Shown here: positions 2,127-20,012 of the stretch, one piece after another
Numbering within the stretch: position 1 is the stretch's first letter
Layout of the letters: each line of letters opens with the position of its first letter
NCBI GenBank assembly: GCA_004794655.1
Contig: SMMW01000046.1
Span: 8,543,501-8,607,500 of the forward strand
Reading direction: 5' to 3'
Source: Marisa cornuarietis
Lineage: Eukaryota > Mollusca > Gastropoda > Architaenioglossa > Ampullariidae
DNA: 64,000 nt
Made by a program: the position numbers and the translations under genes
The notes under the pieces: model-generated
Told to the model about the DNA's origin: nothing
The model's input: the letters and a program-made list of their open reading frames with translations, nothing else
Database searches by the model: none

Positions 2127-5100
2127 ATGAGGGGACAAGTGTTCTGCTTCACAACTTTCGTCAAGTTAGTCTTTCTTGGTAAGGTGATATACAAATTGAT
2201 TTATCCCTACACATATGTGCATGTATATTTGTGTTTTGATTTTTATATTTCTAATATGACTGGTTGTAAGAAATATTTTACATATTCAAGTGAACTTGAA
2301 CTTACCTTATGCCAAACATTATTTCTGTAGTTCTCGTCACCCGCGGGGTGAGGGCTGCTCGGCGTGTTGACGCCAATGTCCATCTTCAAAACGCTCTGTA
2401 TAAGCGGCAGCTTCAGATGGCGGATATGACGTCAGAGGTTTCCCCGCGGCATCGCAGAGCAACAGTCCCGCTTCCCATGCCGGAACTTGACGAGGTGATG
2501 TCCTTAGGTCCCAACTCAGCCCTGGAGGTCACGAGGTCAGCAACCACAGTCCAGGGCACAAAACTGCTGCGTCTGCAAGAAACCTTCAAAGGTAGAAGAT
2601 AGTTTTAAATATGGCCTAGTGTAAATCTTAAAATTCTTAAAATAATTATCCATTTATTGTGATGCTTTTTTAGAACGATTTTTATTTACATATTGTTCTG
2701 TTGCCAGATTTCTTACCTTTTTATTTATCTTAACCTCTATTTGACGTCTGGATAACCTTTGCATAAAAAGAATAGCATATCTACTAACAAGATGCGGTTT
2801 AATTATTTTCACTTTCAAACGTACTTTCGCTCAAAATGTTGCAAAGAAATCGTTTACCGTAAATTTCGGTCTATTGAACGCACCTATTTATAAGCCACAC
2901 CCACTAATTTTTTTTTATCTTAATTTTTTTTCACAAATAAGCTGCACTGGTTTATAAGCCACAACTGTATACAACATGAAAGCTGCATCGTTTGAATTTC
3001 GTCTCGTTTTCGGCATGATGAGGGTGTGTGCTTCAGCAACTGTTCTGAATGCTTCATTTGTATGCAGCTTTGATTGAAAAATGTGAACAGTTAACACTGT
3101 AACAACCCTAACAGTTAATACTTTAAATTAATCGGAATCTGAAAAATCCGCAAAATTCCGCAAACAAGCTGCATCGCTGTTTAAGCCGCAGGGTTTAAAG
3201 CTGAGGACATTAGTCGTGGTTCATAGTCCGAAACTTAGGGTACTTACACACCTGTCTAGAACGAAGCCCTAAAACGGTTCATAAAGGCCGCCATGCCTGG
3301 TGTAGGTCACGTCGTGTGCACTCAGCCTTATTAAAGTGGTAGAAGGAAAATGAAGCCTTATAAGTTTTACACTCAAGGAAATAATACCACTGACTGGAGT
3401 TTTAGACATATATCCACACTCCTTTTTAGCAACTAAAATAAGTGACTAGGGTGTTCTGTGAAATGAAGTCAGGTCACGTGACTGAAGAAGACTGTTGTAG
3501 ACTGGCGGCGGCTGATGACATCATCGGTTCCTACTGAGGGGAAGATCTGCAGCCGTGATGTGAATAGCTTCCTTTAACCCTCTTTGAAACCACTGGGCCT
3601 CGCGGTCCAAGTTGGTGACGTCATGCGGGGGTAGAGACGTGCCCGCCATTTTGAAATTGCTCCTCCACCTGCGAGGACTCCCTTCCATGTTAGAGCAGTC
3701 ATCAGTAAAAGGACATTATGGATACGGTGATCGCACCACAATAGCAACCTAGACTAAAGTGACGAATATCTGGGTGAAGTATACTTATAATTATGGATTA
3801 GAATAAATGTTGTTGCTGAGCCAACGATCTCTGTGTGGCGGATACAAAAGAACGTCAAAGATGTTACATAACGAACGAACCTCCTTCTGCGTCTTTGTAT
3901 CTGATTCGGTCGTACCGGAAACACAATTTGTGCAGATTCTCCTGCACACTGTCTTATCAACTGTCTTATCGGCTAAAGATTGCAATGTGTCGACTCTTAT
4001 ATAAATGTTTTATTATGCGCTTTTCGAGACAATAAAGGAGATGGATCCAGACAAAATACAGATGCATTTGAACAATGATATTGGAAGTCCTAGTATATAA
4101 ATTATATAAACTCTAGCTATAAGAAATTGAGGTTTTAATATCATATCCTTCACTGAAGCCATTCGGTCCCGCTGTAAGAAATATGAAAATTAGATCAGAA
4201 AAACTTTATTCTGATTTGCACGGAACCAAACTTTTACTGTGTCGCAAACTGCAACCCTTGACTAAACCACGAGCAAGTTATTATAACCTTTGGGCAATTT
4301 CACCAAAGTTTCTTTTCTGTGCTGATTGGTGGTGATTTCACGCTTCTGTAGATATTCTTTCAGAGCTGCAACATGAAGATTTTCACAACTTTCGCTGCTA
4401 AATTCGATCAGTGGGCTATAAAATGCCATGTTGTTTTGCCCTCGCTAGGAAAACGCAACTCCCCAAAGGCCAAGAACGATAAACCGCGGAACAAGGTCTA
4501 TTCTATGTTATCATGACCTATTGAATAGATCCGTAACGTATGTAAAAGTTATTTAGAGAAAGTGGTTATGCACAACGGAAGTATACCTTAGCGAAGTCGC
4601 AGTTATTTTCTTAAGAAAGAATACAAATTTGGCCACAAGTCTCGGTATACTCGTTATAAGAACGATATTATGGAGCAAGGAACATTCCGGTACCGAGGTT
4701 CAACTTTCTATACAATTTAAAAAAAAAGAACTTAAATGGTTAACTTTTCGTAAACGATAAATCATTTCGTAACCCAACATTGTGATCAGACATGATTCAG
4801 AACTTCAATATCTATCATTCAAGCTCAACTTACCATTTGATTTGCTTTTCCCTTTGACCTTTTCCTTGTGATGTGTTTTCTCGACAGGGATACCTGTTGA
4901 CGATGCTGTCCTGACGGTGGAAACAGACAGCACAGGGCAGCACGTGCAAGATGCCAGTGGTGCTGTGTATCAGGATATAGAGGAAGACACAGACGGCACT
5001 GCAAACATCGACCCCCAGACTGCAGCAGACATATGTATCAAGTTTAACAGTCATGACACATATAGAGACAACATCCACAATGTCACGGTAAAGTGTTTAT

Positions 5101-5428
5101 AGTTATACACACAAATAGAGAAAAAAAGTTTGAAATGAGCTTTTTTTAAATTATCGTTATTGTCAACGTCATCCTTATCATCAAAGTATAAAAGCCACGA
5201 AGCCAATATCCACAAGGCAATTGTAATATGTATATAAAATCGTATTTTATATTTATTTATTTATGTGTACAATACATCTTTATTCTCTAGTTCTGTGCAA
5301 CAGATATAGAAATTTTCCTTTGTTGTGAGCTCACATATGCAAAGAACTAAACAACATGCAGTCGCAAACAGTTACTACACTCTTAACCCCCCTCATAGCA
5401 ATAGTTATCAGACACACAGACGCGCGCG

Positions 5429-18100: not shown

Positions 18101-20012
18101 ATCACGGTAATTTATATACATACACGTACGGAGAGAAGCAACAAAAAAAAAAACAACAACGAAAGAAATATTAAGTGTTTAAGAGACTTTAAGGTTCCAC
18201 TCACAATTGCGATTTAAAATTTGCATAAACATTAAACCGAGAGCTGTCTCTCGATCGAGAGAGAGTTTGAAATTCATTAAATTTTTTATTATCCTCAACA
18301 TCAAAGTAGAATATTCATAGATACTACATACACATAACGCAATTATATATAAAATAATATCGCATTATTTATAGATATATATTGAGAGAGAGAGTTATAC
18401 AATTCATTCTTTTTTTTTACTATTACTGTCGTCGATATTTTCATCATCAAAGAAAAAAGAAAATTCAATTATGACCATAATCATCGGTTCCTTGATAATT
18501 ATCAGCATGCAAAAGAAGACAGAGAGAATTAAGAACAATGTATAAAATGCTCTTAACCCTTTTTAAGTAGGACAACACGCTTTCAATTTTCAGAGTGTGT
18601 CCAAAATATTCTTGAACGATGAGAACCGTGCATACCTTGGATATCTGGTGCAGTACCTTGTCCTCGTGTACTGCGACGAGCACCGGCCCACGTGCATCGT
18701 CAACGCGCGTGATGGACAAATCATCGACAGTAGTGAGGCCGAGGAGTCGTGCCGCCAATTTAATGCCAAAGGCACGGGAGGGAATCGCAAGACCGGAAAA
18801 GTCCACTACGGGCAGCTACAGAACTGCTTGGAAGTCACTCGGATAAACGGCACGTGCTACGCAGAAAATAAATACGTTAAGGTCATTAACAACAACGGGT
18901 CTTGCGAATTGGGGAAAGACGGTGAAGCTGCTTCCTACAACTGTGAGGAAGCCACGGATGGGTTCAACGGGGCGTACTCGCCCATTCTGGATGCTCTGTT
19001 TCACGGTACAGTGGTAGCCAGGATGTTTGAGGACTGGTACAACTCCACCCCGTTGAATGATAGAGTCAGAATACGGGCACATTATGGACAAGACATAGCC
19101 AACGCCTTTTGGAATGGTGGAGGCGTATTGTTAGGTGACGGTGATCAGAAGGAGTATCCTCTTGTAAGTCTGGATATTTTAGGACACGAGATCGGACACG
19201 GTGTCACGGAGCAGTCGTCAGGGCTTATATACGCTAACCAATGGGGAGCCATCAATGAGGCGTTCTCAGACATGATGGGAGAAGCAAGCGAAGCTTATCG
19301 GTCGCAGGCGGACTGGGTTATGGGCTGGGAACTCACAAAAGATGCAAGACCTGGCATTCGCTTCTATGCCAATCCCTCTTCTGATGGCAATTCTATCTCC
19401 CATGTTGACAACTTCACCAACGATCTAGACGTTCACTATGGCAGCGGTGTGTACAACCGTGTTTTCTATCTTCTTGTCCACGATTACGAGCTGCCCATCA
19501 AAGAAATCTTCCGCGTCTTTCTGCACGCCAACCAAATGTACTGGCATCACATGTCTGACTACAACACCGCTGCCTGTGACGTCATGAAGTCTGCCTACGA
19601 TCTGGGTCAAGATGGCGCTCTCTTCCGCCAGGCTTTCAAAGAGGTTGGGATAGAGGTCTGTGACATAGAAACCCATGTTGTAGGTCTTCGGAACGATGCG
19701 ACTTACAGTGACATTACGGTGTCCGTCGATGTGACCCCTGCTTACTTGTACGTATTCCCTCAAGAAACTGCGTCGTTGAACTACAACAGCGTAAATATCA
19801 CCGCCGAAAGCTCTATTGCAGACGTGCACATTATCCTGACCAAAGAGGGCTGGGATGTTGATTGGAACGACCAGGAAATATTAGCCGAGGACGACAATTT
19901 CGTCCAAATAAAATTTGAAACTGATGAAGCTACCTTTCCGTTCTACATCTGGTTAACAACACAGTCTGAGGTTCCTTTAACTGACGTCACGCTTTGGGCA
20001 TCTGCATTCTGA
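15160..20012 (+). CDS. Secreted vibriolysin-like M4 zinc metalloprotease, paralogue 2 (4 exons, 642 aa)
   Basis: Exons are 15160-15208, 16247-16507, 17907-18106 and 18594-20012, with the same phases as paralogue 1 and 643 codons including the stop. The signal peptide spans exons 1-2. The propeptide keeps LRLQETFKGIPV. Catalytic residues are all present: HEIGH at 368-372, Glu392 in GAINEAFSDMMGE, and His451 in DVHYGSG. Differences from paralogue 1 cluster before the active site (HYGQDIANAFWNGG), after it (MGWELTKDARPG) and in the C-terminal domain (YVFPQETASLNYNS). No stop or frameshift is seen, so both copies look functional and may differ in substrate preference. An alternative first exon is proposed at 16043-16076. 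Immediate neighbours are the upstream paralogue and the gene-less copy C. Confidence 0.88.
16043..16076 (+). CDS. Candidate alternative first exon of protease gene 2
   Basis: ATG TGG GGG TTC ACA GTG ACA ATA GTC TTT CTT G is followed by GTGAGA, a usable donor. It ends in the same phase 1 and the same VFL residues as the main exon 1 (15160-15208), and would splice to exon 2 at 16247 to give a shorter signal peptide. A TATA-like stretch (GTATATTTAAAC) is about 65 bases upstream, near 15976-15987. It looks like a partial duplication of exon 1. Whether it is transcribed is not known. Confidence 0.45.
16975..17240 (-). mobile_element. Penelope-like element remnant in intron 2 (copy B)
   Basis: The minus strand reads HDITILDRKAQWFQRGVKEA and then NPVLI, close to the C-terminal GIY-YIG part of Penelope-like elements. 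The open frame here covers about 94 codons, longer than in copy A at 3470-3700. It is a relic shared by both protease copies. Confidence 0.5.

What the first reader, a model, noticed from the sequence alone, without database searches (positions are those of the whole stretch)
2127..20012. Tandem pair of animal genes for vibriolysin-like M4 proteases, possibly of bacterial origin
Both genes keep the full HExxH...E...His active site, and the text around it (HGVTEQSS, NEAFSDMMGE, SHVDNF, DVHYGSG) is of the vibriolysin type. M4 peptidases are mainly bacterial and only sporadic in animals. The genes have three introns, a eukaryotic signal exon and a TATA promoter, so they are not contamination. Horizontal acquisition followed by intron gain and duplication is a reasonable inference.
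Basis: partly seen in the sequence, partly recalled or inferred. Interest (0 to 1): 0.75.

Follow-up and report, generated by a model that had tools for sequence, protein, structure and literature searches.

The report
Bacterial-type protease gene array in snails
A snail carries a row of apparently working genes for a secreted protein-cutting enzyme of a type otherwise typical of bacteria, a gene family that molluscs appear to have acquired before they split into snails, clams and octopuses and have since multiplied and altered.

Summary
Two uninterrupted four-exon genes (2127-10981, 15160-20012, + strand) encode FTP-M4-M4_C zymogens with zinc ligands and catalytic residues in place. They are not just a pair: the genome (window at C322:8543501-8607500) has eight such copies in tandem plus two broken remnants.

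The transfer inference is right in outline but misdated. All 40 eukaryote-named proteins among 298 listed are molluscan (24 species). They form one clade with unnamed, probably eukaryotic sequences. Transfer into this snail lineage alone is rejected (AU p=4.5e-5). Nearest other relatives are mainly proteobacterial vibriolysins; nesting within them has bootstrap support, but AU does not reject a sister position (p=0.31). One ancient acquisition before the molluscan radiation is the best reading.

New here: two paralogue lineages share no intron position; exon 2 looks homogenised across the array while exons 3-4 diverged; A and B differ at five of five recalled S1' pocket positions, nearly invariant in 22 bacterial rows, predicting different substrates.

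The parts
2127..2178 (+). Gene A exon 1 (start of signal peptide; phase-1 donor). In-frame alternative ATG at 2118
   Evidence: similar in gene B
2331..2591 (+). Gene A exon 2 (end of signal peptide, N-terminal pro-segment, start of FTP); the exon that looks homogenised across the array
4888..5087 (+). Gene A exon 3 (FTP / pro-segment)
5638..8415 (-). LINE-type retroelement remnant (endonuclease plus reverse transcriptase in separate frames) inside intron 3 of gene A
   Evidence: RVT_1 9.1e-29, Exo_endo_phos_2 1.8e-07
9563..10981 (+). Gene A exon 4: end of propeptide, whole M4 catalytic domain, C-terminal beta-sandwich domain, stop
10154..10168 (+). Gene A HEIGH zinc/catalytic motif
15160..15208 (+). 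Gene B exon 1 (start of signal peptide)
16247..16507 (+). Gene B exon 2 (the exon that looks homogenised)
17907..18106 (+). Gene B exon 3
18594..20012 (+). Gene B exon 4: M4 catalytic domain and C-terminal domain; model mean pLDDT 89.9
19185..19199 (+). Gene B HEIGH zinc/catalytic motif
19662..20009 (+). Gene B C-terminal domain, probably a divergent PPC/collagen-binding-like beta-sandwich

Best explanation
Genes A and B are the last two members of a tandem array of eight genes (exons 2-4 uninterrupted in each) for secreted zinc endopeptidases of the vibriolysin/pseudolysin branch of family M4, in a caenogastropod snail close to apple snails. Mechanism (by homology, not assayed): a signal peptide sends a zymogen out of the cell; the FTP propeptide assists folding and inhibits the catalytic domain; processing before the GTGGN segment frees a Zn enzyme (HExxH plus downstream Glu, His and Arg) that cuts peptide bonds N-terminal to a residue held in the S1' pocket; a C-terminal PPC-like beta-sandwich probably binds substrate or matrix. 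Origin (inferred): one proteobacterial vibriolysin-type gene with signal-FTP-M4-PPC layout entered an animal ancestor before the molluscan radiation, gained introns independently in different paralogue lineages, and was duplicated repeatedly. Within the array, gene conversion keeps exon 2 alike while exons 3-4 diverge. A and B form an old, separate subfamily, and A's S1' pocket has turned partly polar, so A probably has a different specificity from B.
Against: The AU test does not reject animals lying outside the sampled bacterial vibriolysins, so nesting and donor are unsettled; the constrained tree scored 6.7 log units higher than the free one. The unnamed clades are taken as eukaryotic by inference. 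Pfam does not report PepSY or PPC in A or B at E<=1, and molluscan tails do not match the unnamed-clade tails in profile comparison (E 0.096, probability 0.6%). Exon 1 was found only for A and B. For G6 against B the likeness runs about 300 bases into the upstream intron (77%), and for G5 about 10-20 bases beyond the exon; G3 and G4 were not aligned. No expression, activity or localisation data. The S1' list is recalled (of its residues only Leu197 was seen in a passage) and the test was made after looking at A and B. Molluscan enzymes vary more in general: of 110 positions near-invariant in bacteria, 9 vary more in molluscs than the most variable S1' position.
Confidence: 0.7

Rival explanations
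1. Vertical inheritance: an M4 protease of vibriolysin type was present in early eukaryotes or animals, and most lineages lost it.
For: Unnamed, probably eukaryotic clades branch outside molluscs, so the family may be older than Mollusca; the AU test allows animals outside the bacterial vibriolysins.
Against: No named eukaryote outside Mollusca among the 298 proteins listed (capped lists); no intron position shared between the two paralogue lineages compared, unlike many old animal genes; the animal rows sit with vibriolysin-type bacteria and apart from the other bacterial M4 types used as outgroup at 100/100.
Confidence: 0.15
2. Recent transfer of a bacterial vibriolysin into this snail lineage.
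For: The best named non-molluscan matches are bacterial M4 proteins, vibriolysins among them.
Against: Homologues across molluscs; forcing A and B with 10 bacterial rows costs 523 log units, AU p=4.5e-5; array members pair with Pomacea genes.
Confidence: 0.01
3. Several independent transfers from bacteria to different molluscan or other animal lineages.
For: In the first 380-row FastTree the unnamed pair P0132/P0091 fell among bacteria, away from molluscs. Cephalopod, bivalve and gastropod sequences are deeply divergent.
Against: Under the site-heterogeneous model all animal-type rows form one clade at 100/99 and 100/100, with molluscs one clade at 100/99 in both.
Confidence: 0.09
4. Exon 2 is alike across the array because its synonymous sites are under constraint, not because of gene conversion.
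For: For G1 and G2 against B the alike block stops at the splice sites.
Against: Between species exon 2 is not unusually conserved: G6 against its Pomacea orthologue P0001 is 0.80 in exon 2 and 0.87 in the catalytic domain, G5 against P0002 0.85 and 0.84; B's exon 2 is as close to P0001 and P0002 (0.84, 0.82) as that of other array members, while B's catalytic domain is far (0.70) (protein level only). Where introns can no longer pair, conversion would be confined to exons anyway.
Confidence: 0.15
5. Assembly contamination by bacterial DNA.
For: Bacterial-type protein.
Against: Introns, a LINE inside an intron, an animal-type neighbour and a 10 Mb contig; the same family on contigs of tens of Mb in many molluscs.
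Confidence: 0.003

Closest known systems
Vibriolysin (Vibrio, MCP-02) and pseudolysin/LasB, family M4
   Different: Eukaryotic gene with introns; Pfam PepSY and PPC not reported; S1' pocket diversified (bacteria L-V-V-I-L in 21 of 22 rows)
Thermolysin / bacillolysin (Gram-positive M4)
   Different: 25-28% id; the vibriolysin-type disulfide cysteines are present here (their absence from thermolysin is recalled)
Molluscan predicted proteins named 'elastase-like', 'virulence metalloprotease-like', 'neutral protease-like' or 'uncharacterized' (Babylonia, Haliotis, Octopus, Pomacea and others)
   Same: Same clade; array members G5 and G6 pair with Pomacea P0002 and P0001
   Different: The A/B subfamily has no counterpart among the four Pomacea proteins found; the names read as automatic predictions, and my ten searches listed no paper on them
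Fungalysin (M36)
   Different: 13-15% id; different family

Membership tests
Peptidase family M4 | HExxH plus downstream Glu zinc ligand, M4 and M4_C domains above cut-off | tested here: met
Peptidase family M4 | FTP propeptide (secreted zymogen) | tested here: met
   FTP 33.0 and 33.6 bits against cut-off 21; secretion itself not tested
Peptidase family M4 | Thermolysin-like fold | tested here: met
   (predicted model of B exon 4)
Peptidase family M4 | Zn-dependent endopeptidase activity | not testable with these tools
   needs recombinant enzyme
Vibriolysin/pseudolysin branch | Closer to vibriolysin/LasB than to thermolysin in sequence and fold | tested here: met
   trees
Vibriolysin/pseudolysin branch | Two disulfides (LasB C30-C58, C270-C297; pairing recalled) | tested here: met
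   four cysteines present in A and B; bonding itself not tested
Vibriolysin/pseudolysin branch | PepSY domain in propeptide | tested here: inconclusive
   not reported by Pfam at E<=1; also missing from the Pfam column of some bacterial homologues, e.g. P0066
Vibriolysin (as against pseudolysin) | C-terminal PPC domain | tested here: inconclusive
Bacterial-to-animal gene transfer | Animal clade nested in bacterial diversity | tested here: inconclusive
   97/98 and 97/97 support; AU does not reject the alternative
Bacterial-to-animal gene transfer | Integrated in the animal genome with introns | tested here: met
Recent, lineage-specific transfer | Closest relatives bacterial, not other molluscs | tested here: not met

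The most novel reading that the evidence does not exclude
A bacterial vibriolysin was captured once by an early spiralian or still older animal, survived vertically in gastropods, bivalves and cephalopods and in at least one further, unnamed eukaryotic group, acquired introns independently in its paralogue lineages, and in apple-snail relatives became a converting gene array: a pre-pro exon is homogenised while the mature enzyme diversifies, including the specificity pocket that bacteria keep almost unchanged.
Probability: 0.55. Interest if true: 0.72.

Novelty: new variant of a known kind. Interest (0 to 1): 0.6.

Why it matters
It would give a long-retained bacterial protease family in a major animal phylum, with a record of intron gain and paralogues suited to testing how substrate specificity changes. 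It also has a practical consequence: transcripts of such host genes can be mistaken for bacterial virulence genes. In a poly(A) RNA-seq study of Kellet's whelk egg capsules, contigs were called microbial by best BLASTx bit score against Swiss-Prot groups, and 'virulence metalloprotease (vibriolysin)' and 'neutral protease (aeromonolysin) (vibriolysin)' are listed with origin bacteria (PMC10913743, passages seen). That these are whelk transcripts is my inference; the contigs were not seen.

Tried and rejected
Rejected: contamination (introns, LINE, animal-type neighbour, 10 Mb contig); recent transfer; the idea that the N-terminal ARRVDA motif is an animal-only signature, since some bacterial propeptides begin similarly, e.g. 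AAERVNL; constraint as the likelier cause of exon-2 likeness. The first FastTree placed P0132/P0091 among bacteria; the later trees did not, and I give weight to those. One search built a tree but its display failed on a name clash; one search showed it. In one search P0024_Octopus_b is counted as 'bact' only because its label ends in _b, so the change counts of that table are off by that row.

Rows left out: one search dropped 20 of the 97 rows (mostly long branches: P0178, P0160, P0173, P0161, P0164, P0168, P0170, P0175, P0167, P0152, P0156, P0141, P0134, P0065, P0023, P0045, P0182, P0145, P0073, P0084); one search dropped 7 more (P0196, P0150, P0162, P0226, P0077, P0074, P0255) and added 9 (four array genes, the single-copy paralogue, P0002, P0004, and P0023 and P0045 again). 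In one search, 26 of 28 molluscan rows gave a tail.

Led nowhere: ten paper searches. Among the papers listed (20 of 123, 20 of 28, the rest in full) no title or abstract start describes M4 proteases encoded by molluscs or their transfer; the library holds open-licence papers only. Passages were looked for in PMC7826175, PMC7656900 (none found), PMC10913743, PMC9785129, PMC9299988 and PMC10755728; of the last two I also saw the outline. PMC7827031 was fetched by a wrong guess at a DOI and is irrelevant. The C-terminal domain is not placed cleanly by fold: CBD/PPC, SIDT and PliG domains are near ties.
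Full report
What is there. Gene A (2127-10981) and gene B (15160-20012) each have four exons with GT-AG introns in phases 1, 1 and 0 and code for 643 and 642 residues without an internal stop. Both match Pfam FTP, Peptidase_M4 and Peptidase_M4_C above cut-off. They agree at 523 of 643 aligned residues; whole-gene Ks is 0.144 and Ka 0.103. Introns and flanks are alignable in blocks of 74-87% identity between 302-11361 and 13496-20383, so the A/B duplication copied the whole gene. A LINE remnant lies in intron 3 of A on the other strand.

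Not a pair but an array. After nine unanswered requests the genome search replied: the window is C322:8543501-8607500 of a 534 Mb assembly in 572 contigs, and PF02868 finds eight copies without stops in a row on the + strand plus a broken one. tblastn with single exons shows exons 2, 3 and 4 in the same order in all eight, from 8485614 to 8563509, with two degenerate remnants at 8516957-8517479 and 8519367-8522261; exon 1 was found only for A and B. Exons 2 to 4 translate without stops in all eight. I call the six upstream genes G1-G6. A and B are the last two; nothing else in the window matched B. Elsewhere there is a single-copy paralogue on C322 at about 5.19-5.20 Mb and three more divergent, exon-split copies on C450.

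Relatives. Three database searches listed 298 distinct proteins; 40 carry a eukaryotic name and all 40 are molluscan, from 24 species of gastropods, bivalves and Octopus (each list shows only the best 120). Many lie on contigs of tens of Mb. None of the listed names is a heterobranch gastropod, Crassostrea or Mytilus, but absence was not tested. They look eukaryotic because in several the sequence before the pro-segment becomes unalignable at about the same point, as at a splice site. That is inference.

Tree. With a site-heterogeneous model and 77 rows, molluscs are one clade (100/99), molluscs plus unnamed rows are one clade (100/99), and this lies among mainly proteobacterial vibriolysins (97/98) apart from the other M4 types used as outgroup (100/100); none of 200 bootstrap trees had the bacteria on one side. 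A second tree of 79 rows agrees (100/100 and 97/97). Within molluscs, bivalves are together and most gastropods are together; a Haliotis/Gigantopelta pair and the Octopus rows branch earlier, so at least two paralogues are old. Against this stands the AU test: a tree with the sampled bacteria on one side and the animals outside is not rejected (p=0.59 with 97 rows, where it scored 6.7 units higher than the free tree; p=0.31 with 77 rows). So the affinity to vibriolysin-type bacteria is firm, but the donor and the nesting are not. Forcing A and B together with ten bacterial rows is rejected.

Array history. G6 pairs with Pomacea P0001 (100/99), G5 with P0002 (97/90), and G1 and G2 group with P0003 and P0004 (99/95); A and B are sister to all of these (100/98), so they are an old subfamily (G3 and G4 were not in the tree).

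Exon 2. Between G1-G6 and A/B (12 pairs) exon 2 has Ks 0.09-0.19, against 0.69-1.15 in exon 3 and 0.73-0.92 in the catalytic domain. For G1 and G2 against B the only alignable stretch within 1 kb either side is exon 2 itself, splice site to splice site; for G5 it runs 10-20 bases further, and for G6 about 300 bases into the upstream intron at 77%; G3 and G4 were not aligned. Between species exon 2 is not specially conserved: G6 against P0001 is 0.80 in exon 2 and 0.87 in the catalytic domain, G5 against P0002 0.85 and 0.84; B's exon 2 is 0.84 and 0.82 to P0001 and P0002, although its catalytic domain is only 0.70 (protein level; A was not compared there). Outside the apple snails exon 2 is less conserved than the catalytic domain, e.g. 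0.36 against 0.58 for Littorina. Gene conversion, mostly confined to the exon because introns can no longer pair, explains this best.

Introns. The single-copy paralogue groups with Babylonia P0023 (100/100) and has at least 10 introns, placed by an automatic splice fit to P0023; none coincides with the array's three, the nearest being 18 residues away. Unnamed frames such as P0121, which groups with bivalves in the tree, run from about B residue 81 to the end without a break, and others of that kind lose their upstream match at about residue 78; the unnamed clade's frames run through the pro-enzyme. Two unnamed frames (P0017, P0018) lose similarity just at array intron 3, so that intron is probably shared with them. 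Independent intron gain from an intronless start fits; loss by retrocopy in some lineages is not excluded.

Specificity pocket. At five S1' wall positions (LasB L132, V137, I186, I190, L197; list recalled, numbering checked against the alignment; of these only Leu197 was seen in a passage of PMC9299988), 21 of 22 bacterial rows read L-V-V-I-L and one L-V-I-I-L; B reads L-I-M-L-I and A reads Y-T-S-I-S. A and B differ at 5 of 5, against 42 of 298 in the catalytic domain (hypergeometric 4.5e-5) and 12 of 110 at positions near-invariant in bacteria (6.5e-6); variability in 31 molluscan rows at these five is above that of the other near-invariant positions (Mann-Whitney p=0.002), although nine other positions vary even more. 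The positions were examined after seeing A and B, so the p-values are indicative. The other array genes keep mostly hydrophobic pockets, with Ser at position 186 in four of six. Over 28 array pairs the catalytic domain has median Ka/Ks 0.28, so the genes look maintained; A against B is higher (0.72 over the whole gene).

Known or new. The proteins are in databases under what read as automatic names. Ten full-text searches listed no paper on molluscan M4 genes or their transfer; two of the listings were capped at 20 papers, and the library holds open-licence papers only.

Noticed in passing
window 5638-8415 (-): LINE-type element (endonuclease and reverse transcriptase in separate frames) inserted in intron 3 of gene A
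   Followed up: partly
window 311-383, 13505-13575, 26292-26364, 27697-27769 (+): Four tRNA-like matches, in two pairs of repeated segments; the first two lie in the duplicated A/B stretch; possibly tRNA-derived SINEs
   Followed up: no
window 51447-51893 and 55472-56497 (+): Ankyrin-repeat frames, the second with a SOCS box (ASB-like), an animal-type neighbour
   Followed up: no
window 40240-40821 (+): Transposase_1 (mariner-type) remnant
   Followed up: no
window 29295-29897 (+): Open frame of about 200 aa with a likely signal peptide (by eye) and no Pfam match; perhaps the first exon of an unknown secreted protein
   Followed up: no
L098-L102 (C450:4091084-4131169): Three further divergent, exon-split M4 copies, one inverted, with best summed score to an Octopus protein (P0065); perhaps an old paralogue lineage in the same genome
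   Followed up: partly
L104+L103 (C322 5188246-5204482): Single-copy M4 paralogue with at least 11 exons, grouping with Babylonia P0023
   Followed up: yes
PMC10913743: Whelk egg-capsule poly(A) transcriptome lists vibriolysin transcripts as bacterial; they may be host genes
   Followed up: partly
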